NCBI GenBank assembly: GCA_017548045.1
Contig: JAFYNR010000010.1
Span: 1 to 35,270 of the forward strand
Reading direction: 5' to 3'
Source of the DNA: Clostridia bacterium
Lineage (GTDB): Bacteria > Bacillota > Clostridia > Oscillospirales > Acutalibacteraceae
DNA: 35,270 bases
A model generated the notes under the pieces. The model worked only from the letters and a program-made list of their open reading frames with translations, did not search any database and was not told where the DNA came from. The position numbers and the translations under genes were made by a program. Below are positions 2,235 to 26,717 of this stretch, piece after piece. Numbering within the stretch: position 1 is the first letter of the stretch; each line of letters opens with the position of its first letter.

Positions 2235-2415
2235 TACAAAATGACCTCTTTCTTTGATTTATTTTGATTTTTTCAAACACAGTTTTTCTGTGTATACTTT
2301 ATAGGGTAGGGACCTATTTCAATTTTGGGGTTAATTACCCGTTTGAAATCCGGTTTTTGTGCGTTGTACCCTGCGCCGCTGAAAATTATGAAAGGTTCTG
2401 GAGATTTGACCGCCC
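2235..2415 (-). other. HNH-terS intergenic region, candidate cos site
   Basis: This 181-base gap between the HNH stop and terS start is unusual in an operon where other genes abut. It holds the GGGGCGGTCAAATCTC stretch right after the HNH stop, several short runs of G and C (GGTCCCTACCC, CGGGTAATTAACCC), and a small hairpin ACACAG/CTGTGT around 2277-2294. In HNH-dependent cohesive-end phages the cut site lies near the HNH and terS genes, so this is a candidate packaging initiation site. That is inference from position and composition. Confidence 0.35.
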
Positions 2416-2775
2416 CTACCGGGTGTTCCTTTTATTGTTTGCGGCAAGGGTGATGGCAGAATGACAGCTCTTGCAAAGAGACATCAAGTTGTCATTATCG
2501 TGAGTGCCGCCTTCTGCAAGTGGGAGCTTGTGATGTACTTCTTCTACCGGAACATACCTTCCGTGCTTGAGGCACTCTTCACAAAGCGGATGTTCGGACA
2601 CATACCTTGCTCGTATCTTCCGCCACTTGCTTCCATATCTTTTGTTGGTTTCTGGGTCGCGCAAGTAATGATTGTATTGGTAGTTTGCCTTTGCCTTGTG
2701 TTCCTCGCAGTAGTCCTTTTCTGTTAGGTTAGGACAGCCGGGGTATCGACACGGCTTCTTCGGTTTCCTTGGCAA
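2416..2775 (-). CDS. HNH homing-type endonuclease of phage packaging module
   Basis: This protein of about 119 residues has an N-terminal zinc-ribbon-like cluster (CRYPGCPN ... YCEEH) and a C-terminal HNH fold: EHPLCEEC, then VHHKLPLAEGGTHDNDNLMSLCKSCHS with paired cysteines binding structural zinc. The start is taken as TTG at 2775, giving MPRKPKKPCRYPGCP, because a strong GGAGG site lies eight bases upstream and related phage proteins begin this way; the upstream ATG at 2790 has no ribosome site and would itself overlap it. In cos phages such HNH proteins work with terminase to cut concatemers, which fits its place directly before terS. Confidence 0.9.
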   Translation of the reverse strand: MPRKPKKPCRYPGCPNLTEKDYCEEHKAKANYQYNHYLRDPETNKRYGSKWRKIRARYVSEHPLCEECLKHGRYVPVEEVHHKLPLAEGGTHDNDNLMSLCKSCHSAITLAANNKRNTR

Positions 2776-2792
2776 CCACTCCACCTCCATTC

Positions 2793-2833
2793 GGACATAA
2801 AGAAAGCCCCACAGGATTCATCTCCTGCGAGGC
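2793..2833 (-). terminator. Hairpin terminator between DUF1492 regulator and HNH gene
   Basis: On the minus strand a 12-bp stem (10 of 12 paired; 2822-2833 with 2805-2816) ends in GGGGC and is followed by TTTCTTTATG. It sits immediately before the HNH start and would stop or attenuate early transcripts at the early/late junction. The 16 bases at its downstream edge (2793-2808) are identical to those of a second hairpin at 12338-12353. Confidence 0.6.
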
Positions 2834-2908
2834 TGTCGTTTGATATTTATCTACAATACCATTATAGCACATTCTACAGTACCATCAAGTACCATTAGGT
2901 ACCAACTT

Positions 2909-3322
2909 TTATTTTTTCAAAATTTTTTCAACCGAATCAAGAGCTGAATTGTGAATTCTCATCGAGGTTGTTTTTGAAATAAAAGAAGTAGCCATAATTG
3001 CATCCCACGTCATACAGCAAAGGTAACGCTTCTCAAGAAGCAACCGTTCGTTTTTGTTTTCGACCTGCATAATAACAGAACGGATTTCAGTTTTCTTGTC
3101 AACGAGAGTGTCAATCTCTGCGTTGATTTCTTCCTGCAATGCGATTATTTTTATAACAATATCCTCAAGCCTTGATGTGCTGCCATTGCCACCCTTCGGC
3201 ATATCTGAAAGCACAGAGGTACATTTTGTTGCCATCGAATTCAGCCCATCGAGCATATCGATTTTGGTGTTGATGCTATCATCAAGGTATCGTACCTGTG
3301 ATAAATATTCTTTTGCTGTCAT
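2909..3322 (-). CDS. DUF1492 phage transcriptional regulator (sigma-like/ArpU-like)
   Basis: This 137-residue protein matches DUF1492 over its whole length: MTAKEYLSQVRYLDD at the N-terminus, a long coiled segment, then RYLCCMTWDAIMATSFISKTT and MRIHNSAL, which looks like a sigma region 4/RinA-type helix-turn-helix. Members sit at the end of early operons in Gram-positive phages and are thought to activate late transcription. The start is the ATG at 3322, eight bases after AAGGAG and overlapping the previous gene's stop by ATGA; a GTG at 3331 lies inside that ribosome site and is rejected. A terminator-like hairpin and the packaging genes follow, matching a role as late-gene switch. Confidence 0.85.
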   Translation of the reverse strand: MTAKEYLSQVRYLDDSINTKIDMLDGLNSMATKCTSVLSDMPKGGNGSTSRLEDIVIKIIALQEEINAEIDTLVDKKTEIRSVIMQVENKNERLLLEKRYLCCMTWDAIMATSFISKTTSMRIHNSALDSVEKILKK

Positions 3323-3591
3323 AAACGACACTCCTTTCGTAATCTTTCAAGCAGCATTTTTCCACTTACTGTTGTCAGTTCAGAAAACCACTTTGATGTG
3401 AAGAAAGTTTCTATATCGGTGATTTTCCGTTTGATTCCTCGCATCTTGTATTCCAGCTCTTTTTTGGTTTCTTTTTTTCTTGCTCTATTGCGTTGCTTCG
3501 TAACGTTGTGATAGCCTCTTGCAAGTTTCCTATAATCTCTTGCTGCTAATTCAATAACAGCGTTTGCAAGCTCCTGATAATTCTCAAGCAT
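3319..3591 (-). CDS. Small helical phage protein of unknown function
   Basis: This 90-residue protein begins MLENYQELANAVIELAARDYRKL and is rich in Arg and Lys (KQRNRARKKETKKELEYKMRG), predicted largely helical. Related short proteins commonly sit between VRR-NUC and DUF1492 genes in Firmicutes prophages; none has a known function to my knowledge. The start at 3591 is chosen because GGAGG lies eight bases upstream; the longer frame to 3672 would add an implausible leucine-rich segment that is the antisense of VRR-NUC sequence. It overlaps VRR-NUC by eight bases and the next gene by four (ATGA), so translation is coupled. Nucleic-acid binding is possible from its charge, but unproven. Confidence 0.75.
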   Translation of the reverse strand: MLENYQELANAVIELAARDYRKLARGYHNVTKQRNRARKKETKKELEYKMRGIKRKITDIETFFTSKWFSELTTVSGKMLLERLRKECRL

Positions 3592-14629: not shown

Positions 14630-15520
14630 TCAAACGGCTTTACTTTTTGAGCCAATCGGTTCACAGCCGTGTGCAATAAGGCAATTATTAAGATCGATAA
14701 TATCGAAGTGTCGAATCGACCAAAAGATACGATAAATTGCTGTTTCAGGTGCATTTCTGAATGCGTATCCAGCAATTTTCAAAAGCTGCTCGGCATGGCT
14801 CAAATCGAGTTTTAAACCGAAGCAAATAGCTACCGCATTTCGATAGGTCGGAATATAATCGGGCTGCGTTTTTATTCTACTATATATGTTCGGTGTAAGG
14901 TTCGTACTTTCGACAAACTCGTGAACGTCAACTTTTTTCTCGCATATAATTTTGCATACTTCTTGTGAAAATGTCGGGAGGAAGCACTCGTAAGAGGACT
15001 TATATTCTTCCACAGCTTGTTCAACAATACTGTCTAAATCAACAGATACTCCATAGAGACTTCGGATTCCAACCTTTTCTGCAAATCGTAATTGATTACG
15101 GACACCATTGGTTTCACCGTTGTTGCTATTAAATTTCTTGGGGCCAATAAGCTCAACCGCATCCTCGTAGCCGTTGCTTCTGAACGCGATAGCGCCTTCG
15201 GTTTTATAGCTTTCAACAAAAAGACTGTTTATCATACATTCCTTTGCATGAAGCAGGGCATACCGTGAGAGTTCAGGCTTATCATTATTGTTTATAAAAT
15301 ACTGCGGTTTATTTCGCACCAAACGCCCCTCAACCAAAACATAAAGCTCGCTTGCAATTACGTGAAAAAGACTGGAATCTTCAAGGCAACGGTCAACGAT
15401 AAATTCTATCGAGACCCTTGGGTTCTTCAAAAAAGCGATTCTCTGCTCGTCTGTCATTTCCTCTCGTGCTATCTTCCGCACACGCTTGCTTTCCGGTTTC
15501 TTTTCTCGCAACGTCATCAT
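14630..15520 (-). CDS. Two-part protein sharing a C-terminal helical domain with the macro protein
   Basis: This 296-residue protein is unassigned in its N-terminal 165 residues (helical, with IVDRCLEDSSLFHVIASELYVLVEGRLV). The C-terminal part, roughly residues 185-290, aligns with the last 105 residues of the macro-domain protein at 19405-20481: both have the pattern F..S.N....Y/FS+IK...DY.P....AV...GL.L.L......LLK.AG.... followed by a helix pair and an acidic/aromatic end. That domain is widespread in Firmicutes as a C-terminal extension on diverse partners and has a DNA-binding-like helical look. GAGGTG precedes the ATG at 15520; it follows ImmA by five bases. Regulation or anti-defence is possible, not shown. 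Confidence 0.7.
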   Translation of the reverse strand: MMTLREKKPESKRVRKIAREEMTDEQRIAFLKNPRVSIEFIVDRCLEDSSLFHVIASELYVLVEGRLVRNKPQYFINNNDKPELSRYALLHAKECMINSLFVESYKTEGAIAFRSNGYEDAVELIGPKKFNSNNGETNGVRNQLRFAEKVGIRSLYGVSVDLDSIVEQAVEEYKSSYECFLPTFSQEVCKIICEKKVDVHEFVESTNLTPNIYSRIKTQPDYIPTYRNAVAICFGLKLDLSHAEQLLKIAGYAFRNAPETAIYRIFWSIRHFDIIDLNNCLIAHGCEPIGSKSKAV

Positions 15521-15525
15521 ATTAA

Positions 15526-16194
15526 TTACACCTCACAATATATATCCAAAAATTCGTGCGGTCTCTCATAGTCAACCTTTTCAACAAGACCGAGCTGAAG
15601 CAACCGAATAGAAAGAGCCTTTTTTGACACACGCAGATATCTTGCCATATCACAAAACCGCTCATAATTTTTGAAATTATACAATGGGTTCAATCTCACT
15701 ATATGATTTGCCCCTATAAAAATGTAAAAAACCGTTCTGACCGTTTCATCGGGAAGCAACAGCTTTGATGCGGCACGGTCAACTATCCGCTCATAATCTG
15801 TAGTAGCTTTGCCACGTCTATAGCAAAGAACGATGTCCGAGGGACATTCACCATTTATAATTCCGTGTACTGCTTCATGTGCTTTTGTATAGTTGCATCT
15901 GCCGAATTGCTTTTCTTCAAGTAACGACTCATCAATAATAACCGTTTTTTTTGGGAATGCTTCTTCGACTCGTTTATCATCTTTCCAAACTTTAAGTGAC
16001 ATATCTGAAAAAATAGACAAGCCGAGAATTTCACCTCTTGAGGAAAGTTTGCGATAACAGACATTGATATCTAAATATTCACGCAAGAATTTATCAATAT
16101 CTATCGGTGCGTACTTTGGGTGAGAGTCACCGAGAAACGCCTGCAGATGCTTACTGCACATTGCATCGATTTCTTTTGCGGTTAATTCTCTCAT
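15526..16194 (-). CDS. ImmA/IrrE-family metallopeptidase
   Basis: This 222-residue protein has the zinc-protease signature HEAVHG at residues 106-111 with a downstream acidic segment (DRAASKLLLPDETVR) supplying the third ligand, followed by a winged-helix-like tail (YLRVSKKALSIRLLQLGLV). ImmA proteases cleave phage/ICE repressors (ICEBs1 ImmR, Deinococcus DdrO) when DNA is damaged. Start ATG 16194 shares one base with the previous stop (TGATGA) and follows GGAGGG by nine bases; upstream ATGs are less well spaced. Its repressor target is not adjacent; the Cro/C1 protein at 31277 or an unseen one are candidates. Confidence 0.88.
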   Translation of the reverse strand: MRELTAKEIDAMCSKHLQAFLGDSHPKYAPIDIDKFLREYLDINVCYRKLSSRGEILGLSIFSDMSLKVWKDDKRVEEAFPKKTVIIDESLLEEKQFGRCNYTKAHEAVHGIINGECPSDIVLCYRRGKATTDYERIVDRAASKLLLPDETVRTVFYIFIGANHIVRLNPLYNFKNYERFCDMARYLRVSKKALSIRLLQLGLVEKVDYERPHEFLDIYCEV

Positions 16195-16442
16195 CAGCAT
16201 TTGCCCTCCATAAACCACCGATTTTCATCTTCCGAAAAATATAAAAAGGTTTCCTTTCCGCTGATACGCACGGTGTAGCGTATGCCCGTGCCGCCAACCT
16301 TTGTGGAAGAAGCTCGGCATTTATATATCACCTTATCAACCTCGTAGGATTTACCATCATCCCATACGATTTGCAAAGGCTGTATTTCACCATTCTCATC
16401 TTGCATAATTAAAACTTTAACATAAACCTTTCTCTTTGCCAT
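16194..16442 (-). CDS. Small companion protein of DNA polymerase IV operon
   Basis: This 82-residue protein (MAKRKVYVKVLIMQDENG...) has beta-strand character throughout with KAGGTGIRYTVRISGKE-like and LYFSEDENRWFME segments. It belongs to a family found with dinB in Clostridia and is presumably SOS-induced. Function unknown. AAGGAG precedes the ATG; it lies nine bases from dinB and overlaps ImmA by a base. Confidence 0.8.
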   Translation of the reverse strand: MAKRKVYVKVLIMQDENGEIQPLQIVWDDGKSYEVDKVIYKCRASSTKVGGTGIRYTVRISGKETFLYFSEDENRWFMEGKC

Positions 16443-18162: not shown

Positions 18163-18328
18163 TTATTTTTTCTTTTTTGTTGGCAACTTATCAAGTTCTC
18201 CACCGAGTTGCTCGAGTCTCTTGATTATTTTTGACAGTTTCTCGGCTTGTTTTTGTGCATCAGCATTTTAGCTTTAATTTTGTCTGTATAGAATTTATGT
18301 AATTCTGAACCTTGCTTAATTCAAGTTT
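18163..18328 (-). pseudogene. Possible frameshifted remnant of a small coiled-coil gene
   Basis: On the minus strand one frame reads KLELSKVQNYINSIQTKLKLK then stops at TGA; a second frame, one base on, continues ADAQKQAEKLSKIIKRLEQLGG and ends in KLPTKKKK before a stop. Joining them by a single base gives a coherent coiled-coil peptide, so the gene appears broken by a one-base change near 18266. No start codon with a ribosome site is visible. Alternatively it is noncoding; confidence is low. Confidence 0.3.
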
Positions 18329-18684
18329 AACAACCCTGTAAAGAAATCAATTCTTTCTCGCTCTGATAATCTGCAATAGCAATAATCAAGCATCTTGGTT
18401 TTAATTTCAGATATACTCTTTCTTCCAAGGTTGCGTATACAAGGTAAAGCATTCTGCTGCAATGCCTCAAGCAAATCTCCAATTGTAAAAATACCGCTCC
18501 GGCGTAATCCGTTATAAGCTCGTACTGAAAGCGAAAGTTCTAAAAGGTCTGCATTGATAGTATCTTTTCCCACGGGGATTGAAACATTAATAGTACTCCC
18601 AAAAACTGCATGTATTGTTTCTATAATGCCACGCTGGTTTGCAATCTTGCAAAGTTCTACCGCATCGAATTTTTCTGTTTTCAT
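18316..18684 (-). CDS. Free-standing RNA polymerase alpha-CTD-like protein
   Basis: The 122-residue protein carries, at about residues 44-103, the helix-hairpin-helix pattern of the RNA polymerase alpha C-terminal domain: LLELSLSVRAYNGLRRSGIFTIGDLLEAL followed by IRNLGRKSISEIKTKM. The normal alpha assembly (N-terminal) domain is absent; the first 43 residues are a different small helical segment. In alpha the CTD binds UP-element DNA and activators, so this protein could bind promoter DNA, compete with alpha, or bridge to a partner. GGAGG is eight bases before ATG 18684. It diverges from the phosphatase gene over a symmetric double promoter that would be an obvious target. Confidence 0.8.
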   Translation of the reverse strand: MKTEKFDAVELCKIANQRGIIETIHAVFGSTINVSIPVGKDTINADLLELSLSVRAYNGLRRSGIFTIGDLLEALQQNALPCIRNLGRKSISEIKTKMLDYCYCRLSERERIDFFTGLLNLN

Positions 18685-18841: not shown

Positions 18842-19315
18842 ATGAAACTATTTATCACCAATCGAGCAAGAGTAGAAAGAATGGGGCAAGAAGGCTTTTT
18901 AGAGAAAGTTGCTTTGATAAGCATAACTGATTATGGTGATGTACCTTTGAACTTGGAAAATAAGCCAAGATTTCTATTACAACTTTCTTTTGATGATGTT
19001 CCATTGGGCAAAGCGATCGAAGCGGAATACGGGAGAAAACTAACAGACGAAGAGATTGTTAATGCAGAAAAAGAACTTCATGCTTTATCTGATGAACAAG
19101 CAAAAATGATTGTTGATTTCTACAATGAAGTTTACGGAAGAGCGGTTGTGTTAATTTGCCAATGTGAACACGGTGAATCACGGAGTGCAGCAATTGTTGC
19201 TGCAATTATGGAACATTACTATAAGAAAGGAGTCCAGATTTTTGCGGATGAACGATACTGTCCCAACAAATCAATTTACAAAAAAATGCTGTATTTTTTC
19301 TCGCATCAAACCTAA
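18842..19315 (+). CDS. Cysteine-based phosphatase-like protein (dual-specificity fold)
   Basis: This 157-residue protein contains the CX5R phosphatase loop C108-E-H-G-E-S-R114-S inside LICQCEHGESRSAAIVAAIM, the P-loop of tyrosine/dual-specificity phosphatases. An acidic loop (SFDDVP) at about 49-54 could hold the general acid. The start ATG 18842 (MKLFITN) follows GGAGG by five bases; a longer frame from 18737 runs through the dyad and is rejected. Substrate is unknown. Such small Cys-phosphatases occur beside macro-domain genes, suggesting a link to ADP-ribose or phosphate-ester processing; this is inference. Confidence 0.75.
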   Translation: MKLFITNRARVERMGQEGFLEKVALISITDYGDVPLNLENKPRFLLQLSFDDVPLGKAIEAEYGRKLTDEEIVNAEKELHALSDEQAKMIVDFYNEVYGRAVVLICQCEHGESRSAAIVAAIMEHYYKKGVQIFADERYCPNKSIYKKMLYFFSHQT

Positions 19316-19335
19316 TCACAATCGATCATTGATTA

Positions 19336-19364
19336 TTGATAAATGTTTATGACTGTGATAAAAT
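19336..19364 (+). promoter_or_regulatory. Promoter of macro-domain gene
   Basis: TTGATA (19336-19341), 17-base spacer, TAAAAT (19359-19364), with TG one base upstream (GTGATAAAAT). It resembles the GTGATATAAT elements of neighbouring genes. Confidence 0.7.
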
Positions 19365-19404
19365 TGTTTCATAACAGGTATAAACATTGGAAAGGAGTAT
19401 TGCG

Positions 19405-20481
19405 TTGCCACTACAAATAATTCGACAAGATATTACAAAAATGCAAGTTGACGCTATTGTCAACCCTTCCAACAGGCATCTTTACCCCGGTGGAGGTGCT
19501 GACTTATCAATACACGAAGCTGCCGGACCCGAACTACTGGAAGCATGTAACGCTCTTGGCGGTTGTGAAGTTGGTAAGGCAAAAATCACCCCCGGTTTCA
19601 ATCTTCCTTGTAAATATGTTATTCATACGGCAGGACCGAACTGGTACAGAGTGGATAACCCAATAGCTTTACTCGCATCATGCTACACAGAATGTTTAAA
19701 CCTTGCTACAAAATATAAATGCGAATCGGTAGCTTTCCCTTTAATCGCGTCGGGTGCTTATGGTTGTCCTAAAGAACAAGTATTAAAAATAGCAACCAAA
19801 GTTATAAGCGATTTCTTGTTTGAAAATGAAATGACAGTTTACATTGTAATTTTCGATAAGAAATCGTATGAAATAAGCGAGCGAATCTTCTGCGATGTCA
19901 AATGCTATATCGATGATAATTATGTCGAGGAACACGCAGAAAGAGAAATTGTTGAGGGTGTATTTGATAATTATTATCCTACATCATTATCAAGAGATGA
20001 ACTGCGTAGACGCAGAGAAATTGCTATTGCCGAACGCAACTTCAAGAAAAAAGAAATCGAAACAGAAGATTTCATAGAATCAGAACTATGTTGTGATTGC
20101 GCCCCTATAATCAGTCTTGATGAAATGCTCAATAATATGGACAAGGGTTTTGCAGATACTTTGTTTTACTACATCGACCAAAAAGGGCTAACGGATGTCG
20201 AGTGCTACAAACGCTCAAATGTAGATAAAAAGACTTTTTCAAAAATCAAATGCAACAAAGATTATAAGCCAAGCAAAAAAACAGCAGTTTCCTTTGCTAT
20301 TGGACTTGACTTAAATCTTGAAGAAACAAACCATTTGTTGAAAACAGCTGGGTTCAGTCTTTCTAAAGCAACTATGTTTGACGTAATAATTGAGTATTTC
20401 GTTTCAACAGGCAATTACAATAATATTTTCGATGTAAATGAAGTGTTATATAAATTCGATCAAGTTACCCTTGGAGTATAA
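19405..20481 (+). CDS. Macro-domain protein with C-terminal helical domain
   Basis: This 358-residue protein has an N-terminal macro domain that binds or hydrolyses ADP-ribose derivatives: DAIVNPSNRHLYPGGGADLSIHEAAG (the GGG ligand loop) and FPLIASGAYGCP at 111-122. Residues about 170-250 are an acidic linker and 255-358 a helical domain homologous to the C-terminus of the 14630-15520 protein (YKRSNVDKKTFSKIKCNKDYKPSKKTAVSFAIGLDLNLEETNHLLKTAG). The start TTG at 19405 follows AAGGAG by seven bases; another TTG at 19387 lies inside the upstream leader. A dedicated promoter (19336) and a terminator (20525-20562) bracket it. Reaction on free or protein-linked ADP-ribose is not decided. Confidence 0.85.
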   Translation: MPLQIIRQDITKMQVDAIVNPSNRHLYPGGGADLSIHEAAGPELLEACNALGGCEVGKAKITPGFNLPCKYVIHTAGPNWYRVDNPIALLASCYTECLNLATKYKCESVAFPLIASGAYGCPKEQVLKIATKVISDFLFENEMTVYIVIFDKKSYEISERIFCDVKCYIDDNYVEEHAEREIVEGVFDNYYPTSLSRDELRRRREIAIAERNFKKKEIETEDFIESELCCDCAPIISLDEMLNNMDKGFADTLFYYIDQKGLTDVECYKRSNVDKKTFSKIKCNKDYKPSKKTAVSFAIGLDLNLEETNHLLKTAGFSLSKATMFDVIIEYFVSTGNYNNIFDVNEVLYKFDQVTLGV

Positions 20482-20521
20482 AAGTCTCTTTTCAAGCGAC
20501 CAATTGAATAAAGCGAATCGC

Positions 20522-20562
20522 TATAATGTGGTTGTAAGGTTGAAAAACCGAACAACCACATT
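20522..20562 (+). terminator. Macro-gene terminator overlapping a -10 element
   Basis: AATGTGGTTGT/ACAACCACATT (20525-20535, 20552-20562) with an inner GGTT-gaaa-AACC and a T-rich tail forms an intrinsic terminator. A TATAAT at 20522-20527 overlaps its first arm, so VWA transcripts may start inside it. The -35 for that start is poor. Confidence 0.6.
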
Positions 20563-20583
20563 TTTATTTTGGAGGAATTTGTT

Positions 20584-21237
20584 ATGAAAAACAACATCAC
20601 AGAACTCGTGTTCATTCTTGACAAAAGCGGTTCTATGGCAGGACTCGAGAGCGACACAATCGGTGGCTTTAACGCTATGATTGAAAAGCAGAAAAAACAG
20701 GACGGTAAATGCTATGTTTCAACCGTTCTTTTCAGCAACGAAAGTGAAGTGCTTCACGATAGAGTCGAACTTTCTGAAATCAACCCCATGACAGAGCGAG
20801 ACTATGCCGTTGGTGGTTGCACAGCACTTATTGATGCTATTGGTGGAGCGATTCACCACATCGGCAATGTGCATAAGTATGCCCGCCCTGAAGACGTCCC
20901 TGAAAACACAATGTTTATCATCACAACCGATGGCATGGAGAACGCAAGTCATCGTTATACAAGCGATAAGGTCAAGGCTATGATTGAACGCCAGAAGAAA
21001 CGCTATGGTTGGGAATTCCTTTTTATCGGTGCAAATATTGATGCAGTAGAAACTGCTGCGAGATATGGTATTGGTGCTGACAGAGCCGTAAATTACAATG
21101 CTGATAAAGAAGGAACAAGCATTGTTTATGATTCTATTGCAAAAGCGGTTTGCAATGTTCGTGCAAGTGTGCCGTTAAACGAAGATTGGAGTGACGAAAT
21201 CAATCAAGATTATATTCGCAGAGGCGAAAAATGGTGA
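20584..21237 (+). CDS. von Willebrand factor A (VWA) domain protein
   Basis: This 217-residue, single-domain protein has a complete metal-ion-dependent adhesion site: D-K-S-G-S at residues 13-17, the threonine of GGCTALIDAIGG, and the aspartate of TTDGMEN. No signal peptide or membrane segment is seen, so it acts in the cytoplasm. GGAGG precedes ATG 20584 by eight bases; a TTG at 20569 is rejected. VWA proteins of this type occur in TerY-like and chaperone-linked stress systems, where they scaffold partners by metal-dependent binding. Its neighbours suggest that it works with the phosphatase and macro protein; no partner is proven. Confidence 0.88.
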   Translation: MKNNITELVFILDKSGSMAGLESDTIGGFNAMIEKQKKQDGKCYVSTVLFSNESEVLHDRVELSEINPMTERDYAVGGCTALIDAIGGAIHHIGNVHKYARPEDVPENTMFIITTDGMENASHRYTSDKVKAMIERQKKRYGWEFLFIGANIDAVETAARYGIGADRAVNYNADKEGTSIVYDSIAKAVCNVRASVPLNEDWSDEINQDYIRRGEKW

Positions 21238-21249
21238 GTAATCAGTAAA

Positions 21250-21270
21250 AAAGGGCAAATTCCGCCCTTT
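21250..21270. terminator. Terminator after VWA gene
   Basis: AAAGGGC/GCCCTTT hairpin, seven-base loop. T-run quality is stronger on the minus strand (TTTTTTACTG) than on the plus strand, where TTTTTT follows ten bases on. Confidence 0.6.
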
Positions 21271-21298
21271 GCAGTCCGTTTTTTGGGACAGGTGCTCG

Positions 21299-21307
21299 TG
21301 ATATAAT
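21299..21307 (+). promoter_or_regulatory. Extended -10 element upstream of tiny membrane protein
   Basis: TGATATAAT lies 44 bases before ATG 21351. It matches extended -10 elements at 18713, 18805, 24726 and 29332. A good -35 is not seen, which extended -10 promoters tolerate. A second TATAAT is at 21312-21317. Confidence 0.6.
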
Positions 21308-21350
21308 ATGGTATAATTTAGTAGCCACCAAAGAAAAGAGGGCTTTATCA

Positions 21351-21497
21351 ATGCCGGATTTAAATGATTTTTATATTTTTGAAAGCATTACAAATAATTC
21401 TGATACAACAGACGGAGACACTTCCGGGTGCTTTTCTCCTATTGTAATTATCATAGCAATAATTCTTCTTGTTGCTTATTTTATAGGCAACACATAA
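21351..21497 (+). CDS. 48-residue single-pass membrane protein
   Basis: The sequence encodes a 48-residue product with an acidic, Thr/Ser-rich N-terminus (MPDLNDFYIFE ... TTDGDTSGC) and one hydrophobic helix, IVIIIAIILLVAYFI, near the C-terminus. AGAGGG is eight bases before the ATG and a promoter lies just upstream. It is followed after 15 bases by the repeat/CFI-box gene and is probably co-transcribed. I recognise no family; small membrane proteins of this sort can be toxins, anchors or channel components. No standard signal for export is present. Confidence 0.7.
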   Translation: MPDLNDFYIFESITNNSDTTDGDTSGCFSPIVIIIAIILLVAYFIGNT

Positions 21498-21512
21498 AAC
21501 GGAGGTATAATT

Positions 21513-22106
21513 ATGGCAAACAAAGGCAGAAGCGAAAAAAACATTTTCGGCGGTGGCTACACCCACTACGACAGTAACGGAAAAAAGGTCGGACGCAGCG
21601 AACCTAACATATTTGGTGGTGGGTACACCAATTATGATGCCCACGGCAAAAAAGTTGGACGAACCGAACATAATATTTTCGGTGGTGGGTACACCACCTA
21701 TGATAACAAAGGAAACAAGGTAGGCAGAAGCGAACCACAGATATTCGGAGTTGGATATACAAACTACGATAAAAACGGTAAAAAAATAAGCAACAGCGAT
21801 CCGCAACTTTTCGGAACAGGATATAACCATAACGATGGAGGTTGTTACGTTGCAACCTGTGTTTATGGTTCATACGATTGTCCGGAAGTCTGGACGCTGC
21901 GCCGTTATCGTGACAATACTCTCGCGAAATCCTTGTTAGGCAGAGCTTTTATCAAAACATATTATGCTGTAAGCCCAACAATTGTTAAAATCTTCGGAAA
22001 CACGAACTGGTTCAAGGTTTTGTGGAGAAAACCGCTCGATAAAATGGTTTCCGGATTGCTCAAGAAAGGTGTTGAAAATACACCATATGATGATGTAAAA
22101 TATTGA
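21513..22106 (+). CDS. 22-residue-repeat protein with CFI-box C-terminal domain
   Basis: This 197-residue protein starts with four 22-residue units and a degenerate fifth (residues 5-110), consensus GRSEPNIFGGGYTNYDANGKKV, glycine/tyrosine-rich. The C-terminal 85 residues carry CYVATCVYGSYDCPEVWTLRRYRDNTL then GRAFIKTYYAVSP, the CFI-box-CTERM pattern (C.(I/V)AT..YG......LR.(F/Y)RD). That domain is a known tail of varied bacterial proteins, of unclear function. No signal peptide. It could be a scaffold, with repeats interacting with a surface or nucleic acid. GGAGG precedes ATG 21513. It probably pairs with the 48-residue membrane protein. Confidence 0.8.
   Translation: MANKGRSEKNIFGGGYTHYDSNGKKVGRSEPNIFGGGYTNYDAHGKKVGRTEHNIFGGGYTTYDNKGNKVGRSEPQIFGVGYTNYDKNGKKISNSDPQLFGTGYNHNDGGCYVATCVYGSYDCPEVWTLRRYRDNTLAKSLLGRAFIKTYYAVSPTIVKIFGNTNWFKVLWRKPLDKMVSGLLKKGVENTPYDDVKY
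21525..21788 (+). repeat. Four in-frame 66-bp tandem repeats
   Basis: Four copies of a 66-bp unit encode the 22-residue repeats of the CFI-box protein. Copies vary at synonymous and some nonsynonymous sites, and a fifth runs on in degraded form, suggesting old expansion rather than recent slippage. Confidence 0.8.
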
Positions 22107-22136
22107 ATATAAGGAAGAATTGAAAGGAGAAGGAAA

Positions 22137-23561
22137 ATGGCAAGAGGAATAAGTTTAGAGGATTTAAAAGATATAATTGTAGAAGAAGAAATTGAACTCC
22201 CGGAAATAGCGGATAAATCAGCATACAGAAAATACTCAAAGGGTATTGCATTGACAGTAGGTTTTTTGCTCGGTGTAAGTGAAGAAGCAATGATGAAACG
22301 TCTCGAATTTCCTGATGAATTTTTACCTATAAAAGAAACACTCATAAAAGACGACGATGCTGTTGCAATCAGACACCTTAACAATATTCGTTCAAACCTT
22401 ATTTTACACTTTAAAGATGTTAGCAGAAACTTAAGAAATTTGAATTCAACCTTTGTACCTCTGTATGAAATGGAATGGTTCAAAGAAGATTTCAAAGTTT
22501 TAAATAAACTTTCAATTTACATAATTACAGGAAAACCCGATATAAACGAATACCTCAAAAGAATCAATAGTGAAATAATAAAAAGAATCGACAAAATGGA
22601 AAGATATTTCCCAGAATGGGTACGATTTAAACACATAAGAACAATGTTCACAATGCCCGGAAATATCGAAGAAGAGTCAAAAAAATTCCAGTTGAATCGA
22701 AGTTTATATCCGTTCCAAAGATACTTTTATTGGCGAGACCCTGTTGATTCCGGATATATACTTTCAACCGACCGCGATTTGCTTTCGATTATTTATCGCA
22801 ATGGTCATGAAACTTTCACCGATACCGACAGAGTTTGCGATGCAAGCGACAATGTAAAAAACAACATAAACGAATTTATAAATGCTGCATCAAAAATACA
22901 AGTTTTTATTGATGGTGAAAACGCAGATCCGTACAGATTTGCATCCGCTATCGACAGTCTCAAAGAACATGAAATAGAAAAAATCAATAAAATAGTAATT
23001 TATTACGATAGCGAGCACACAACAAAAGCATGGACAATGCTCAAACATTTCACATTCGGTATTGAAGTGGAAGCTATACCGGTTGAACGCATTATGGAAA
23101 ACAAATCTCTCGTTGACCATCGTCTTGTAATGGGTGTATCAAAAGCAATATACAAAGACGAGGTAGATTCGATAATACTTGTTTCCAGCGACTCCGATTT
23201 CTGGTCTGTAATTGATGCATCAGAAGAAGCAAAATATCTTGTCATGGTAGAAAGCGAAAAATGCGGACATGAATTCAAAAATCTGCTTCGTGACAAAGAT
23301 GTTTTTTATTGCTATCTCGACAAATTTATGACACCGAGCGAGGATAAATTTTTCGACCTCGTATTTAAGCATGAACTTGAAAAAGAATTAAAAGCTCGAT
23401 TCCATCTCGGCAACGCACATGAACTTCTTACATCGGTTTTGACCTCTTGCAGAGCTACTGTTTCTAAAGCGGAATCAGATATGCTGTTTGACAAATATAT
23501 AAAAACACTCGTTCTTAAAATAAACGCAGATGGCGATTTTGTTTTGGAATCTGCAAATTAA
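22137..23561 (+). CDS. NYN-domain (PIN-like) nuclease with long N-terminal region
   Basis: This 474-residue protein has an NYN-type PIN-fold domain at about residues 254-405. Acidic catalytic residues are in place: VFIDGEN (D259), DHRLVMG (D327) and LVSSDSDFW (D352/D354). PIN/NYN nucleases cut RNA. The first 250 residues are helical and unassigned (AYRKYSKGIALTVGFLLGVSEEAMM ... KRIDKMERYFPEWVRF), and the C-terminal 70 residues are also helical. AAGGAG precedes ATG 22137. It sits 30 bases after the CFI-box gene and is likely in one transcript with it. RNA processing or defence is plausible. Confidence 0.85.
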   Translation: MARGISLEDLKDIIVEEEIELPEIADKSAYRKYSKGIALTVGFLLGVSEEAMMKRLEFPDEFLPIKETLIKDDDAVAIRHLNNIRSNLILHFKDVSRNLRNLNSTFVPLYEMEWFKEDFKVLNKLSIYIITGKPDINEYLKRINSEIIKRIDKMERYFPEWVRFKHIRTMFTMPGNIEEESKKFQLNRSLYPFQRYFYWRDPVDSGYILSTDRDLLSIIYRNGHETFTDTDRVCDASDNVKNNINEFINAASKIQVFIDGENADPYRFASAIDSLKEHEIEKINKIVIYYDSEHTTKAWTMLKHFTFGIEVEAIPVERIMENKSLVDHRLVMGVSKAIYKDEVDSIILVSSDSDFWSVIDASEEAKYLVMVESEKCGHEFKNLLRDKDVFYCYLDKFMTPSEDKFFDLVFKHELEKELKARFHLGNAHELLTSVLTSCRATVSKAESDMLFDKYIKTLVLKINADGDFVLESAN

Positions 23562-23589
23562 AATGTTTTACGAAAGCAGCTGATAAATA

Positions 23590-24267
23590 GTGAAAAAAGG
23601 TAACGCAAGCGGAATAGGCACAGCGACACATCCTGAAAAGCATTATGAAGTATTTTTTAACCCCGATTCAGCAAAAAAATCAAGGTATAAATGTATTCAT
23701 TATGAGCTTGAAACAAAAGACTGCAAAAAATTGAGGATAGGCTGCGTAGGTCCCTCAAATGATATGTGCCGGTTTTATTGTGAAAGCATCAAACCCGCCG
23801 AACCCAATAAAGCAGAAAAAACCGCAAAACCCCTTGTTGCTGATTTCGATGGTATAAAAGAAATTCCTATGAATGAAATCGTTGTTACCGGAAAACATTT
23901 TGTAAAGCCTTCTCCGGAAAAGGTAAAGGCACTCGTAGCACACTACCTTAATTATGGCAAACTGGACAAGCCTATTATTGTTACCTGTAAAAACGGCAAA
24001 TATCACTTGGAAGATAAGTATCTTCGATATTATGTTGCAAAAGAATTGAAGTTAAAAGCGATACCGGCTGTAACCATTGAAACGAGTAAGGCGTTAAAAA
24101 AGCTGCAAAATCCCGGACAAAAAGTAACACACAAACAGTTCGGTGCCGGTCGAGTTGTAAACACAACGATAAATTTTGTTGAGATTAAATTCAATGCTAC
24201 CGGCAAAGTTATAAAATTTGATATTAACACTTGTTTGAAAAACAACAGTTTTTTCTCTTTTGACTAA
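23590..24267 (+). CDS. ParB/sulfiredoxin-like domain protein with Cys cluster and Tudor-like tail
   Basis: This 225-residue protein starts at GTG 23590. The N-terminus has a likely zinc site (KCIHYELETKDCKKLRIGC ... MCRFYC). A ParB/sulfiredoxin-like domain follows at about 90-165: EIPMNEIVVTGKHFVKPSPEKVKALV and DKYLRYYVAKELKLKAIPAVTI. The tail, KVTHKQFGAGRVV ... VEIKF...KFDINTCL, resembles the DUF3553/UvrD-type small beta domain that binds nucleic acid or polymerase. ParB-like proteins bind CTP or DNA; no HTH is seen here. Such proteins are common in Clostridia mobile elements. The ribosome site is weak, so translation may depend on the NYN gene upstream. Confidence 0.7.
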   Translation: MKKGNASGIGTATHPEKHYEVFFNPDSAKKSRYKCIHYELETKDCKKLRIGCVGPSNDMCRFYCESIKPAEPNKAEKTAKPLVADFDGIKEIPMNEIVVTGKHFVKPSPEKVKALVAHYLNYGKLDKPIIVTCKNGKYHLEDKYLRYYVAKELKLKAIPAVTIETSKALKKLQNPGQKVTHKQFGAGRVVNTTINFVEIKFNATGKVIKFDINTCLKNNSFFSFD

Positions 24268-24287
24268 TGTGTGCGATAGGAGCAATT

Positions 24288-24671
24288 ATGACTAACAAAG
24301 AAAAAATAGAACTACTGAAAGTGCTGCCACCGCAGCAATGTTGCTTGTCAGATTATTATCAAGATTTGCTTGATAAACTCGGAGGCATAAAAAGAAACTA
24401 TGCCGATTATATGACTACCGAGCCTCTTAATTGCGATGCCGAACTGAAACGCACCGAAACTGCAAACTTTGATTTATGTTGTGCCTTTCTTACTTTGCTT
24501 CTGCGAGAGGACAATTTTGCTGAATATGGTTGCTTTGACAATCGTTATAGCAATGGTGATGTTCAGAAAATCATTAACCGAATGATTGTAGTTTTGGAAG
24601 ACCATGAACAGGAAATAAAACGCAGATTGCAAAGTAGAGCGGCAGAGTTTTTGATGTTTATTAATGACTAA
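24288..24671 (+). CDS. Small protein of unknown function
   Basis: This 127-residue protein begins at ATG 24288 (MTNKEKIELL), five bases after AGGAG; the ATG at 24267 is in frame but overlaps the previous stop and has no ribosome site. It is helical, with LPPQQCCLSDYYQDLLDKLGG, MTTEPLNCDAEL and CCAFLTLLLREDNFAEYG segments. Relatives occur in Clostridia mobile elements beside ParB-like genes, but I do not recognise a domain. It ends this cargo series; 89 bases later the restriction gene has its own promoter. Confidence 0.75.
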   Translation: MTNKEKIELLKVLPPQQCCLSDYYQDLLDKLGGIKRNYADYMTTEPLNCDAELKRTETANFDLCCAFLTLLLREDNFAEYGCFDNRYSNGDVQKIINRMIVVLEDHEQEIKRRLQSRAAEFLMFIND

Positions 24672-24734: not shown

Positions 24735-24760
24735 TTTCAAAAAACATAAGGAGTATGAAT

Positions 24761-25570
24761 ATGATATTTACGTATGACTATTTTATCGATAAGTTAAATC
24801 ATAAAATCAAGAGCGATGATTCTTTTGTTTATGAATTATTAGTGACTGTTGTTAAAAACCCAAATAGATATACTGGCATTTTTAGATTAAGTAACGCAAA
24901 AACGAAACTTATTCAAAATGTAACTCAAAGCCGAGAAATTAAATTTGGAGATTTCATGGAAGATATTGTTACAGAATACATATCAAAAATGGGATATCGC
25001 AATTTGGATAAAAGTATCGGACACGACGAAGAAGGTAACGCTCTCAGTGCAGACCAAGTATTTATGAAAGGAGATACTGTATATCTCATAGAACAAAAAA
25101 TCCGCGACGACCACGATAGCACTAAAAAGAGAGGGCAGTTTCAAAATTTCAAAAAGAAATACTCTCTGTTAAAGAAGCAATACCCTAACTATAAAATTAA
25201 TGCAACTATGTGGTTTATTGATGATAGTTTAGTTAAAAACAAAAACTACTATAGTTCAGAAGCTGCACAGGAAATCGCACCTAATATTTCTCTAAATATT
25301 TATTATGGTGGGACTTTGTTTGAAAACCTATTTAATCGTGAGGATGTATGGGACGAAATTTGCTCTTATCTGTTAAGAAACAAGCAAGAGCGAAGTAATG
25401 AGTTGTTAAATATTCCGGATTTTGATACGAGTCCAGAAATTTTAATTGCTTTAAGACGACTTAAAACTAATGAACCAGCACTTTTCAGAAAGCTTAAATC
25501 TTCGACACCAACTTATGTTCAATTAAGAAAAGAGCTGTTCCCTACAGAAACTAATTTGAAAAAAGTATAA
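24761..25570 (+). CDS. Type II restriction endonuclease, HinfI/HpyAIV-like (predicted GANTC)
   Basis: This 269-residue enzyme shows the HpyAIV/HinfI-family run NPNRYTGIFRLSNAKTKL, VTQSREIKFGDFMEDIV and EQKIRDDHDSTKKRGQ. The PD-(D/E)XK active site is most likely D98 (ALSADQVF) with E111-x-K113. MWFIDDSLVKNK.YY and the IPDFDTSPEIL tail also fit the family. Predicted site GANTC comes from the family and the adjoining methylase; it cannot be read from sequence. The start ATG 24761 follows AAGGAG by seven bases; ATG 24755 is one base after it. It converges with its methyltransferase over a shared terminator. Confidence 0.85.
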   Translation: MIFTYDYFIDKLNHKIKSDDSFVYELLVTVVKNPNRYTGIFRLSNAKTKLIQNVTQSREIKFGDFMEDIVTEYISKMGYRNLDKSIGHDEEGNALSADQVFMKGDTVYLIEQKIRDDHDSTKKRGQFQNFKKKYSLLKKQYPNYKINATMWFIDDSLVKNKNYYSSEAAQEIAPNISLNIYYGGTLFENLFNREDVWDEICSYLLRNKQERSNELLNIPDFDTSPEILIALRRLKTNEPALFRKLKSSTPTYVQLRKELFPTETNLKKV

Positions 25571-25575
25571 AATAT

Positions 25576-25611
25576 AATAATGGGGCCTATAACGCTATAG
25601 GCCCCATTATT
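25576..25611. terminator. Shared terminator between R and M genes
   Basis: A perfect 16-bp stem (25576-25591, 25596-25611) with a four-base loop and T-rich flanks on both sides serves both converging genes; its right arm overlaps the methylase stop codon by one base. Confidence 0.9.
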
Positions 25612-26717
25612 TATTGTTGTTTTGCAAGTCTATACTCTTCTCGGATGTCAGAAATAGAAGTCAACTTACCATTTCTTAATACATACCAATAGTCAAAACC
25701 ATTTAAACGGTTTGCTTTTACTCCACGTGCGGTTGCTGCACAAGAATGCATATCCACTTCATTCCCATTATAGAATAACTTTCCGTTAGAACACAATGTA
25801 GCGATAGGTTCACTATTTCTAAAATAGAAACTTTCACCTTCAAAAAAGAAACCCGCTATTATCATCTCTTCCATAGTAACTTTCAACGGCTTTTCATCAT
25901 ATTGTGCCAATGCTATTGGTGTTTCCGTATATACAACTTCACTTAAACGTTTTTCACCGTATTTGCAATATTTTTTATCTTGTTCAATCATAATGTAATT
26001 TCTTCCAAGCTTTTTCGCAGCTACGCCAGTAGTCATAGTGCCACCAAAGGGGTCTAATACTATATCTCCCTTCGAAGAAGAAATTGCAACGATTCTTTCT
26101 AACATTTCCAATGGCTTTTGAGTGCTATGGAGTTTGTTTCCTTCGTCGTCTTTTAATCTTTCTGTTCCAGAACAAACCGAAAAACGCCAAACAGAACCCA
26201 TTTGCTTTCTCGTGCCGTTGCTATATGCTTTTTCTTCGACTGAATCAACATTTAATTCTTTGGCTGTTTTATAGTTAAATGTGTATTTTGATGTTTTGCT
26301 TTTTGTTGCCCATATTAATGTTTCATGGCTATTATTTAATCGTGTACCCATAAAATTGGGGGTAGGATTTTTCTTATGCCATATAACATCGTTTATTAAC
26401 CAAAATCCAACATTTTGCATTATACTTCCTATTGTATAAATGCATTGCATTCCACCGATAACCCAAATCGAACCATTGGGTTTCAATATTCTGTGGCAAG
26501 CTCTCAACCAATCTTCGGTAAATTTCTCATAAGATTCAAGAGAATCGAATTTATCCCAATCATCGTCACAGCCATCAAAATCTGTTCCCTCTACTCTTTT
26601 TAGCACTCCTTCTGTACGCATCCAATACGGAGGGTCAGCAAAAATCAAATCAACACTATTGGCGGGCATTCTATTCATTTCAACAATAGAATCCCCATTT
26701 ATAACACAATTAATCAT
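25611..26717 (-). CDS. N6-adenine DNA methyltransferase, CcrM/HinfI-like, with RAMA domain
   Basis: This 368-residue beta-class methyltransferase has the catalytic DPPYW motif at 28-32 near the N-terminus and the SAM-binding LDPFGGTMTTGVAAKKLGR at 221-239. The middle has the HSTQKPLEMLERIV segment of this class. The last 90 residues form the RAMA domain found on HinfI- and CcrM-type enzymes (AGFFFEGESFYFRN, LNGFDYWYVLRNG). With the adjacent enzyme it should protect GANTC sites. AAGGAG precedes the ATG at 26717, and its promoter (26754-26782) is independent, so methylase can be made without the nuclease. Confidence 0.92.
   Translation of the reverse strand: MINCVINGDSIVEMNRMPANSVDLIFADPPYWMRTEGVLKRVEGTDFDGCDDDWDKFDSLESYEKFTEDWLRACHRILKPNGSIWVIGGMQCIYTIGSIMQNVGFWLINDVIWHKKNPTPNFMGTRLNNSHETLIWATKSKTSKYTFNYKTAKELNVDSVEEKAYSNGTRKQMGSVWRFSVCSGTERLKDDEGNKLHSTQKPLEMLERIVAISSSKGDIVLDPFGGTMTTGVAAKKLGRNYIMIEQDKKYCKYGEKRLSEVVYTETPIALAQYDEKPLKVTMEEMIIAGFFFEGESFYFRNSEPIATLCSNGKLFYNGNEVDMHSCAATARGVKANRLNGFDYWYVLRNGKLTSISDIREEYRLAKQQ

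What the first reader, a model, noticed from the sequence alone, without database searches (positions are those of the whole stretch)
18842..24671. Cargo module linking phosphatase, macro, VWA, repeat/CFI-box, NYN and ParB-like proteins
Eight plus-strand genes of unrelated fold, with close spacing and similar promoters, sit between phage replication and restriction genes. The mix (ADP-ribose handling, phosphate removal, metal-dependent scaffold, RNA cutting, a membrane peptide) suggests a coordinated stress or defence system, perhaps akin in concept to TerY/VWA or ADP-ribosylation-based immunity. The joint function is inference; I know of no described system of this content.
Basis: inference. 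Interest (0 to 1): 0.7.

Follow-up and report, generated by a model that had tools for sequence, protein, structure and literature searches.

The report
ADP-ribose-linked macro-HTH/VWA gene switch
Most of the eight neighbouring genes look like unrelated passengers, but two of them form a switch that recurs across gut bacteria and some phages: a probable ADP-ribose-sensing DNA-binding protein beside a short DNA target that appears to control a second, metal-binding protein.

Summary
The eight plus-strand ORFs exist but are not one module. In 200 genomes of the family, matches to the phosphatase (6 genomes), NYN (7), ParB-like (1), CFI-box (22) and last ORF (2) share no contig with a VWA or macro match outside the own genome. 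Two genes do belong together. The "macro-helical" protein is a macrodomain fused to a Cro/C1-type HTH. The HTH lies within 6 kb of the small VWA gene in 46 of 54 family loci and in 49 of 55 fetched loci from other families. Upstream of VWA, or of ARH-VWA pairs, is an operator, GTCGC-N7-GCGAC, in 49 of 54 and 53 of 55. A -10 box starts 21 bp after it in 43 of 46 and 52 of 53 scored sites, with no good -35: class II activator geometry, centre about -42. A pattern scan of 84,980 genomes stopped at 118 loci: 86 lead into this VWA, 3 into ADP-ribosylglycohydrolase. I infer a one-component regulator that senses ADP-ribose species, a new variant of the ARG/vWA/macro operons predicted by Iyer et al. 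2022. Ligand, DNA binding, sign and output are untested.

The parts
19405..20481 (+). macro-HTH protein: macrodomain (about 19405-19911), variable linker, C-terminal Cro/C1-type HTH (about 20113-20475); predicted sensor-regulator
   Evidence: PF01661 3e-38; domain limits; MacroD-like residues N and D kept in the window copy; HTH_26 matches 14 of 41 family members at E<=10, best 3.2e-6, not the window member; AlphaFold pLDDT 90; most Foldseek rows are XRE-type proteins, best E 0.015
20484..20500 (+). operator GTCTC-N7-GCGAC (consensus GTCGC-N7-GCGAC), followed by C at 20501
   Evidence: site with at most one mismatch in 49 of 54 family loci and 53 of 55 class loci; 3 of 1080 shuffled upstream regions
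20522..20527 (+). -10 box TATAAT of the VWA promoter, 21 bp after the operator; no good -35 box
   Evidence: spacing 21 bp in 43 of 46 and 52 of 53 sites
20526..20561 (+). inverted repeat (ATGTGGTTGT ... ACAACCACAT) followed by a T-run: predicted hairpin complete only in read-through RNA
   Evidence: RNA folding of 45 family and 51 class loci; in the window itself the effect on the ribosome site is small
20584..21237 (+). small VWA protein (217 aa from ATG), metal-site residues invariant; predicted target gene of the switch
   Evidence: phrog_7371 2e-55; D13, S15, S17, T80, D116 in 54 of 54
18842..19315 (+). CX5R (DUSP/Rit1-like) phosphatase-like gene; not linked in relatives
21351..21497 (+). 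48-aa putative membrane peptide; relatives not searched
   Evidence: no family match
21513..22106 (+). four 66-nt repeats + CFI-box protein; not linked in relatives
22137..23561 (+). NYN-domain protein; not linked in relatives
23590..24267 (+). weakly ParB-like protein; no relative in the 200 genomes
24267..24671 (+). 134-aa ORF of unknown kind; not linked in relatives

Best explanation
Genes 19405-20481 and 20584-21237, with the operator between them, are a prophage-borne copy of a widespread regulatory switch. The macro-HTH protein binds the palindrome GTCGC-N7-GCGAC as a dimer through its Cro/C1-type HTH (strong inference). Because the site is centred at about -42 of a promoter with no good -35 box, it most likely activates transcription, as lambda cI does at PRM (inference; the comparison is recalled). 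The macrodomain gates this by binding an ADP-ribose species (inference). Targets are the small VWA protein and, in some relatives, ADP-ribosylglycohydrolase (ARH), HD-domain and SseB-macro proteins. The response would detect abnormal ADP-ribosylation or ADP-ribose and remove or buffer it, with VWA as a metal-dependent client-binding factor (inference). A hairpin reaching from the -10 region to the VWA ribosome site is predicted to keep VWA untranslated in read-through RNA, so that VWA is made mainly from its own promoter (computed).
For: Linkage: HTH within 6 kb of VWA in 46 of 54 loci, macro fused in 39 of 54; HTH in 49 of 55 loci of other families. Operator: 49 of 54 and 53 of 55; the two class misses have at most 71 nt of upstream DNA. 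Rigid spacing, no good -35, both samples. Exact motif TGTCGC-N7-GCGACC in 39 of 45 genomes with VWA and HTH vs 5 of 35 without a VWA match (Fisher 4e-11); by my reading of that list the site is the pair's own in 35 of 45. The seven HTH-only regulators of the family sample all have the operator, so the HTH rather than the macrodomain goes with it. Separate ARH genes carry it: L081, away from the pair; L209, L211 and Selenomonas pSRC2 have one before ARH and another before VWA. ARH and VWA form one ORF in the host's second copy, L015. Pattern scan: VWA directly downstream in 86 of 118, ARH in 3. HTH fold. Hairpin.
Against: No biochemistry; the sign of regulation rests on geometry, and 33 of 99 promoters have a TGn-extended -10 (10 of 46, 23 of 53), which can work without a -35. 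The macro Asp position is D in 40, C in 5, N in 1 of 46 but C in 21, D in 17 and unscored in 4 of 42 class proteins, so ligand or activity may differ between branches. L052 has HTH and VWA without a good operator; L060, L062, L286 and L292 have the operator without an HTH in the fetched stretch, besides contig-edge cases. Altered half-sites do not track the HTH cleanly: GTCTC/GTCAC goes with DKKTFSKIKC helices in 6 loci, but L307 has GTCTC with DRRLF. In 80 genomes, sites away from a pair (22 of 57) are no more than the 28 reversed-pattern controls (my count), so single extra targets may be chance. 29 of 118 scanned promoters precede neither VWA nor ARH. The window lacks an ARH, and its folding effect is small (0.21 vs 0.27 control). 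VWA relatives without macro-HTH are common in other phages (215 records with VWA, 9 with any macro match).
Confidence: 0.6

Rival explanations
1. Same switch, opposite sign: macro-HTH is a repressor sitting over the -35 region, and an ADP-ribose ligand releases it, as proposed for the Nudix/WYL-HTH regulators of ARG operons.
For: Iyer et al. (PMC9503650, section 3.8) predict negative regulators; many XRE proteins are repressors (recalled); the operator lies over the -35 region; 33 of 99 promoters have a TGn-extended -10.
Against: At spacers 16-18 no site has more than 3 of 6 -35 matches (99 sites), so most promoters should be weak unaided; spacing fixed to the base pair is expected of an activator that touches polymerase, not of a repressor.
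Confidence: 0.27
2. The whole eight-gene block is one coordinated defence/stress island.
For: Adjacency and orientation in the window.
Against: Matches to PTP, NYN, ParB-like, CFI-box and orf134 (6, 7, 1, 22, 2 of 200 genomes, own included) never share a contig with the pair outside this genome; no viral-contig relatives of PTP or NYN; no phage record covers the block.
Confidence: 0.04
3. Toxin-antitoxin-like pair: VWA (or its partner gene) is harmful, macro-HTH keeps it in check, and the hairpin guards against leaky translation.
For: Two adjacent genes, HTH partner, copies in phages and plasmids, predicted sequestration of the ribosome site in read-through RNA.
Against: The neighbours of the family loci look mostly like ordinary chromosomal genes (by eye); the same promoter also drives ARH and HD genes; VWA has no toxic activity that I know of (recalled).
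Confidence: 0.07
4. The palindrome is bound by some other factor; the macro-HTH protein is a mere ADP-ribosyl hydrolase neighbour.
For: DNA binding untested; four loci away from contig edges show the operator without an HTH in the fetched stretch.
Against: L059 and L066, whose genomes gave no match to the macro-HTH protein, lack the operator; so does a Fusobacterium VWA with no HTH in 8.6 kb; genomes of L060 and L062, with operator but no HTH in cis, have HTH matches elsewhere.
Confidence: 0.06

Closest known systems
ARG-centric predicted anti-ADP-ribosylation operons (Iyer et al. 2022, PMC9503650; section 3.8 read in full, rest by passages)
   Same: ADP-ribosylglycohydrolase, vWA, SseB, macro, HD or CX5R phosphatases and an HTH-fused sensor regulator recur together; relatives here include ARH+SseB+macro and SseB+macro+HD proteins
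   Different: That section names actinobacteria, planctomycetes and proteobacteria and Nudix- or WYL-HTH regulators called negative; here the named hosts are mostly Clostridia, the sensor is a macrodomain, VWA is the core target, ARH is optional, and an operator with activator geometry is defined; 'operator' and 'palindrom' have 0 hits in that text
MacroD-type ADP-ribosyl hydrolases (MACROD1/2, bacterial macrodomains)
   Same: The macrodomain aligns to MACROD2 and bacterial homologues in the PDB; N and D kept in the window copy
   Different: Fused to an HTH; Asp position is Cys in 21 of 42 class proteins
XRE/Cro-C1 one-component regulators (SinR, ClgR, DdrO, CapH, C proteins)
   Same: Fold matches of the C-terminal domain, palindromic operator
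   Different: HTH at the C-terminus behind a macrodomain, with extra helices after it; fold E-values weak (best 0.015)
SirTM/Zn-macro and DarTG systems (recalled; search listing only for PMC4518038 and PMC11490716)
   Same: Macrodomain as ADP-ribosylation eraser
   Different: No ART or sirtuin match among the 30 window proteins scanned with Pfam
TerY-P triads (recalled)
   Same: Small stand-alone VWA protein
   Different: No kinase or PP2C match in the block; partner is a macro-HTH protein

Membership tests
ARG-centric anti-ADP-ribosylation operon | ADP-ribosylglycohydrolase gene in the operon | tested here: not met
   none in the window block; beside the pair in L014, L015, L017, L063 and beside a macro-HTH gene in L072 and in 5 of 14 viral-contig loci
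ARG-centric anti-ADP-ribosylation operon | HTH-fused sensor regulator (Nudix or WYL) | tested here: not met
   an HTH is there, but the sensor is a macrodomain
ARG-centric anti-ADP-ribosylation operon | vWA chaperone-like protein | tested here: met
   VWA domain present; chaperone activity not tested
ARG-centric anti-ADP-ribosylation operon | CX5R (rhodanese-phosphatase) or HD phosphatase | tested here: inconclusive
   a CX5R gene adjoins in the window but is not linked elsewhere; HD proteins under the operator in some relatives
ARG-centric anti-ADP-ribosylation operon | no coupled ART or sirtuin | tested here: inconclusive
   no such match among 30 window proteins scanned with Pfam; neighbourhoods of relatives not scanned systematically
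XRE-type one-component regulator | Cro/C1-type HTH | tested here: met
   HTH_26 in 14 of 41 members at E<=10, best 3.2e-6, not the window member itself; model pLDDT 90; DdrO, SinR, ClgR, C.AhdI, 434 Cro among the fold matches, E>=0.034
XRE-type one-component regulator | binds a palindromic operator | not testable with these tools
   operator found by comparison only
Class II activated promoter | site centred near -41.5/-42, -10 box, no -35 box, fixed spacing | tested here: met
   transcription start predicted, not mapped; 33 of 99 also have an extended -10
MacroD-type hydrolase | Asn and Asp of the GGGxD loop | tested here: met
   both present in the window copy; Asp in 40 of 46 but 17 of 42 class proteins; activity not tested
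DarTG / macro-sirtuin toxin-antitoxin | adjacent ADP-ribosyltransferase or sirtuin | tested here: not met
   no match in the window proteins scanned
TerY-P system | Ser/Thr kinase and PP2C next to the VWA gene | tested here: not met
   no such match in the block

The most novel reading that the evidence does not exclude
Macrodomains can serve as the sensor of a one-component transcription activator: rising ADP-ribose species make a macro-HTH dimer switch on a class II promoter. This defines a dedicated ADP-ribosylation-response regulon (VWA, ADP-ribosylglycohydrolase, HD hydrolases) spread through Clostridia and carried by some of their phages.
Probability: 0.4. Interest if true: 0.86.

Novelty: new variant of a known kind. 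Interest (0 to 1): 0.74.

Why it matters
Bacterial ADP-ribosylation is known mostly from toxins, phages and a few toxin-antitoxin pairs; how cells sense it is largely open (recalled). This gives a candidate regulator, its DNA site, its promoter geometry and first targets. The VWA gene is in 58 of 216 sampled genomes of the class, and cultured strains carry the set, so it can be tested directly. It also offers a way into the function of a common, unexplained small VWA protein.

Tried and rejected
Eight-gene module: rejected by co-occurrence. TerY-P, DarTG and PADLOC systems: no fitting partners; PADLOC gave only the restriction pair and weak stray matches. The ArsC/Spx-like gene (7 of 53 fetched family loci), RtcB (L043), the WapI-like gene and others between macro-HTH and VWA were read as a variable slot, not core. 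Idea that the conserved macro-VWA spacer is a known structured RNA: Rfam found only two tRNAs in the window. Viral-contig scan with the exact promoter found nothing, although 9 of 11 viral-contig loci with macro-HTH and VWA carry the site (one with a mismatch) with other -10 forms. Fold search of the full model against viral models: the named rows among the 50 shown are macrodomain proteins and viral polyproteins, so a model of the HTH part alone was used. PDB sequence searches with the HTH part found nothing or one match at E=1. Operator-HTH covariation: looked clean in the family sample, but the class sample holds an exception (L307). Literature: no paper found on a macrodomain-HTH regulator or on this operator in the held open-access library; subscription papers are not covered.

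Rows dropped: three fragmentary VWA hits (G043, G059, G002) were not fetched; of the 62 places, the own genome's two, two family genomes (G066, G101) and three end-of-contig fragments (G214, G298, G206) were not fetched, leaving 55. One search scored loci with a site within 330 nt of VWA (46 of 54, 53 of 55). Hairpin scripts scored 45 of 54 and 51 of 55 loci. Of 25 plasmid records with VWA, 4 were looked at.
Full report
What is there. The window is contig C65 of an unnamed 2.38-Mb genome. It carries phage-type genes on the minus strand (terminase small subunit, D5/DUF5906 helicase, PolA, SNF2, DinB) and ends in host-type genes next to two tRNA-Leu genes, so it is prophage-like. The eight plus-strand ORFs of the finding exist. 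Family scans support macro, NYN and CFI-box well, VWA through phrog_7371, and the phosphatase and ParB labels only weakly.

Test of the block. I searched 200 genomes of the family with seven of the eight proteins (not the 48-aa membrane peptide). Genomes with a match, own included: VWA 55; macro 84, of which many are macrodomains without the C-terminal domain; phosphatase 6; NYN 7; ParB-like 1; CFI-box 22, mostly only the CFI end; last ORF 2. Comparing contig numbers, none of the phosphatase, NYN, CFI-box or last-ORF matches outside the own genome shares a contig with a VWA or macro match. By contrast the C-terminal part of the macro protein lies beside VWA in most genomes.

Neighbourhoods. 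I fetched 53 VWA loci from 52 family genomes (three fragmentary hits left out) and added the window: 54 loci. The C-terminal domain lies within 6 kb in 46, fused to a macrodomain in 39; of the 8 without it, three have VWA near a contig end. Genes between macro-HTH and VWA vary: ArsC/Spx-like in 7 loci, ADP-ribosylglycohydrolase (ARH, PF03747) in 3, WapI-like, RtcB and others; L063 has ARH after VWA. In the own genome a second copy (C25, L015) has macro-HTH, a 145-aa relative of the WapI-like protein, and ARH joined to VWA in one 494-aa ORF.

The operator. The spacer before VWA in the window is 89% identical to the spacer before ARH-VWA on C25. Aligning spacers showed a palindrome, GTCGC-N7-GCGAC, often within TTTGTCGCYTNNNARGCGACC. 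It occurs with at most one mismatch upstream of VWA, or of ARH in ARH-VWA pairs, in 49 of 54 loci; shuffled upstream regions gave 3 of 1080. L039 has it before an extended ORF, so 50 of 54 by inspection; L052, L058, L059 and L066 lack it. No site was assigned to the start of a macro-HTH gene. With every offset counted alike, a -10-like hexamer starts 21 bp after the palindrome in 43 of 46 sites, and no other offset exceeds 8. At spacers 16-18 no site has more than 3 of 6 -35 bases; 10 of 46 have a TGn-extended -10. The palindrome centre is thus at about -42 of a predicted start, the classical class II activator position (recalled).

Replication. A search of 216 genomes of the class found VWA in 58, own genome and two family members included. 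I fetched 55 loci, none from the window's family. The operator is present in 53 of 55; the two without have at most 71 nt upstream. The HTH is in cis in 49 of 55, in five of them (L319-L323) on the opposite strand with the operator between. The spacing is 21 bp in 52 of 53; 23 of 53 have an extended -10.

Specificity. The exact motif TGTCGC-N7-GCGACC occurs in 39 of 45 genomes with VWA and HTH and in 5 of 35 without a VWA match (Fisher 4e-11). By my reading of the list, 35 of the 57 sites are the pair's own VWA promoter, one per genome; the other 22 are not more than the 28 hits of the reversed control pattern, so as a group they are at chance level. In the own genome the looser pattern gives the window site, the C25 site and one other that I did not inspect. 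I read ten extra sites: L081 lies 76 bp before a separate ARH gene, and L084 after an ArsC-like gene in a genome without the pair; the rest precede ordinary or unknown genes.

Targets. A scan of 84,980 species genomes with the motif plus TATAAT at the fixed distance stopped at 118 stretches; about 7 would be expected by base count alone in the whole collection (my arithmetic, equal base frequencies). All 118 were held: this VWA lies directly downstream in 86, ARH in 3, neither in 29; an HTH is in the fragment in 77 (the 80 printed loci gave 57, 2 and 21). I read 21 of the 29 and scanned ten of their genes: two YfbK-type VWA, one DUF2828/DUF7788 VWA, one DUF2201 VWA-metallopeptidase behind a gene that looks MoxR-like by eye, an ARH in L103, HD domains in L102 and L124, an AAA ATPase, a weak DUF6847 protein and an ankyrin protein that carries the HTH; L122 and L124 have ARH later in the run. 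Others (for example L098, L112, L132, L154, L165) look unrelated and may be chance. The printed record titles are mostly Clostridia, many of them gut or rumen bins, with a few Spirochaetes, Fibrobacterales and Chloroflexi-labelled bins.

Mobile copies. VWA relatives occur in 215 of 50,697 phage records, mostly actinobacterial and Pseudomonas phages with no macro-HTH match; macro matches occur in 9, near full length in 2. These two, MT838259 and the gut phage PV036457, have macro-HTH, operator and VWA; PV036457 adds a gene annotated as phosphohydrolase. In IMG/VR 14 loci match over macro and HTH (L235 with its frame broken); 11 have VWA nearby, and 9 of these have the operator before it (L212 with one mismatch; not seen in L213 and L216). 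L209 and L211 have one operator before ARH and a second before VWA; L214 has one (one mismatch) before ARH. Of 25 plasmid records with VWA I looked at 4: Selenomonas ruminantium pSRC2 has macro-HTH, operator, ARH, operator, VWA; Peptoclostridium acidaminophilum has macro-HTH, operator, VWA; Vescimonas has operator and VWA with no HTH in the stretch; a Fusobacterium VWA has neither.

The regulator. The C-terminal 136 residues match the Cro/C1-type family HTH_26 in 14 of 41 members at E<=10, best 3.2e-6, and HTH_3 in 6; the window member itself gives no HTH match. AlphaFold gives pLDDT 90. Most of the 50 Foldseek rows are XRE-type proteins (DdrO, SinR-DNA, ClgR, CapH, C.AhdI, 434 Cro); the rest are mainly MPnS/HEPD oxygenase chains and the first row, 9a7f; no E-value is below 0.015. 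In the family sample GTCTC or GTCAC half-sites with an HTH in cis go only with DKKTFSKIKC helices (5 loci); the class sample adds one such (L269) but also L307, GTCTC with DRRLF, and other altered sites with common helices, so this is weak support at best. The macrodomain matches MacroD-type structures. Its Asp position is D in 40 of 46 but C in 21, D in 17 and unscored in 4 of 42 class proteins, which fits a sensor with shifting ligand better than a fixed enzyme (inference).

Insulation. In read-through RNA the VWA ribosome site is mostly paired: mean unpaired probability 0.17, against 0.60 in RNA begun at the predicted start and 0.34 with shuffled upstream DNA (45 loci, lower than its control in 34; Wilcoxon 7e-5). 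In 51 class loci: 0.19, 0.71, 0.28 (37 of 51; 9e-4). The shorter RNA has fewer partners, so the shuffled control is the fair comparison; the window's own effect is small (0.21 against 0.27).

Reading. Shown by comparison: the pair, the operator, its geometry, a predicted HTH fold, and recurring company of ADP-ribose enzymes in a minority of loci. Inferred: binding, activation, ADP-ribose as ligand, and removal or buffering of ADP-ribosylation as the output. A role against phage ADP-ribosyltransferases is plausible, but the family loci sit mostly among ordinary chromosomal genes (by eye). In a prophage the pair may protect the lysogen or blunt the host's own response.

Known and new. Iyer et al. 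2022 (PMC9503650; section 3.8 read in full, other passages by term search) predicted ARG-centred operons with vWA, SseB, macro, phosphatases and Nudix- or WYL-HTH regulators. The present set is of that kind with a different sensor, a VWA core, mostly clostridial named hosts and a defined operator. I found no description of a macro-HTH regulator or of this operator in the searches listed, which cover open-access papers only.

Noticed in passing
window 14630-16218 (-): An ImmA/IrrE-like gene (HEXXH seen by eye) followed by a gene with a second, divergent copy of the same HTH-type domain; both match phrog_4031, so the macro-HTH's DNA-binding part may be kin to a phage regulator family.
   Followed up: partly
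window 24755-26717: HpyAIV-type restriction enzyme convergent with a CcrM-like methyltransferase, with a 16-bp-stem terminator-like repeat between them that scores on both strands at 25576-25611.
   Followed up: no
window 18316-18684 (-): A 122-aa protein with an RNA polymerase alpha C-terminal domain (PF03118, 5e-16) next to the block.
   Followed up: no
window 21513-22106 (+): Four in-frame 66-nt repeats in front of a CFI-box; a full-length relative at 65% identity lies in G040, on another contig than its macro-HTH/VWA pair.
   Followed up: partly
L139 (Bacilli-labelled bin): HTH-domain gene, operator, DUF2828/DUF7788-VWA gene, a GNAT-like gene and a 410-aa ORF that looks ADP-ribosyltransferase-like by eye only.
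   Followed up: no
L135 (Spirochaetaceae-labelled bin): Ankyrin repeats in one protein with the same HTH-type domain directly under the operator: possible self-regulated relative.
   Followed up: no
L266 (Selenomonas pSRC2): An ADP-ribosylglycohydrolase frame at about 2414-3368 is absent from the PLSDB gene table although it has its own operator; a nucleoside 2-deoxyribosyltransferase and a DUF262 gene follow the VWA gene.
   Followed up: partly
L058 upstream of VWA: No standard operator, but an inverted repeat GGTCAA-N7-TTGACC with the same gap; the genome's listed HTH match is divergent (33%) and elsewhere: possible altered specificity.
   Followed up: no
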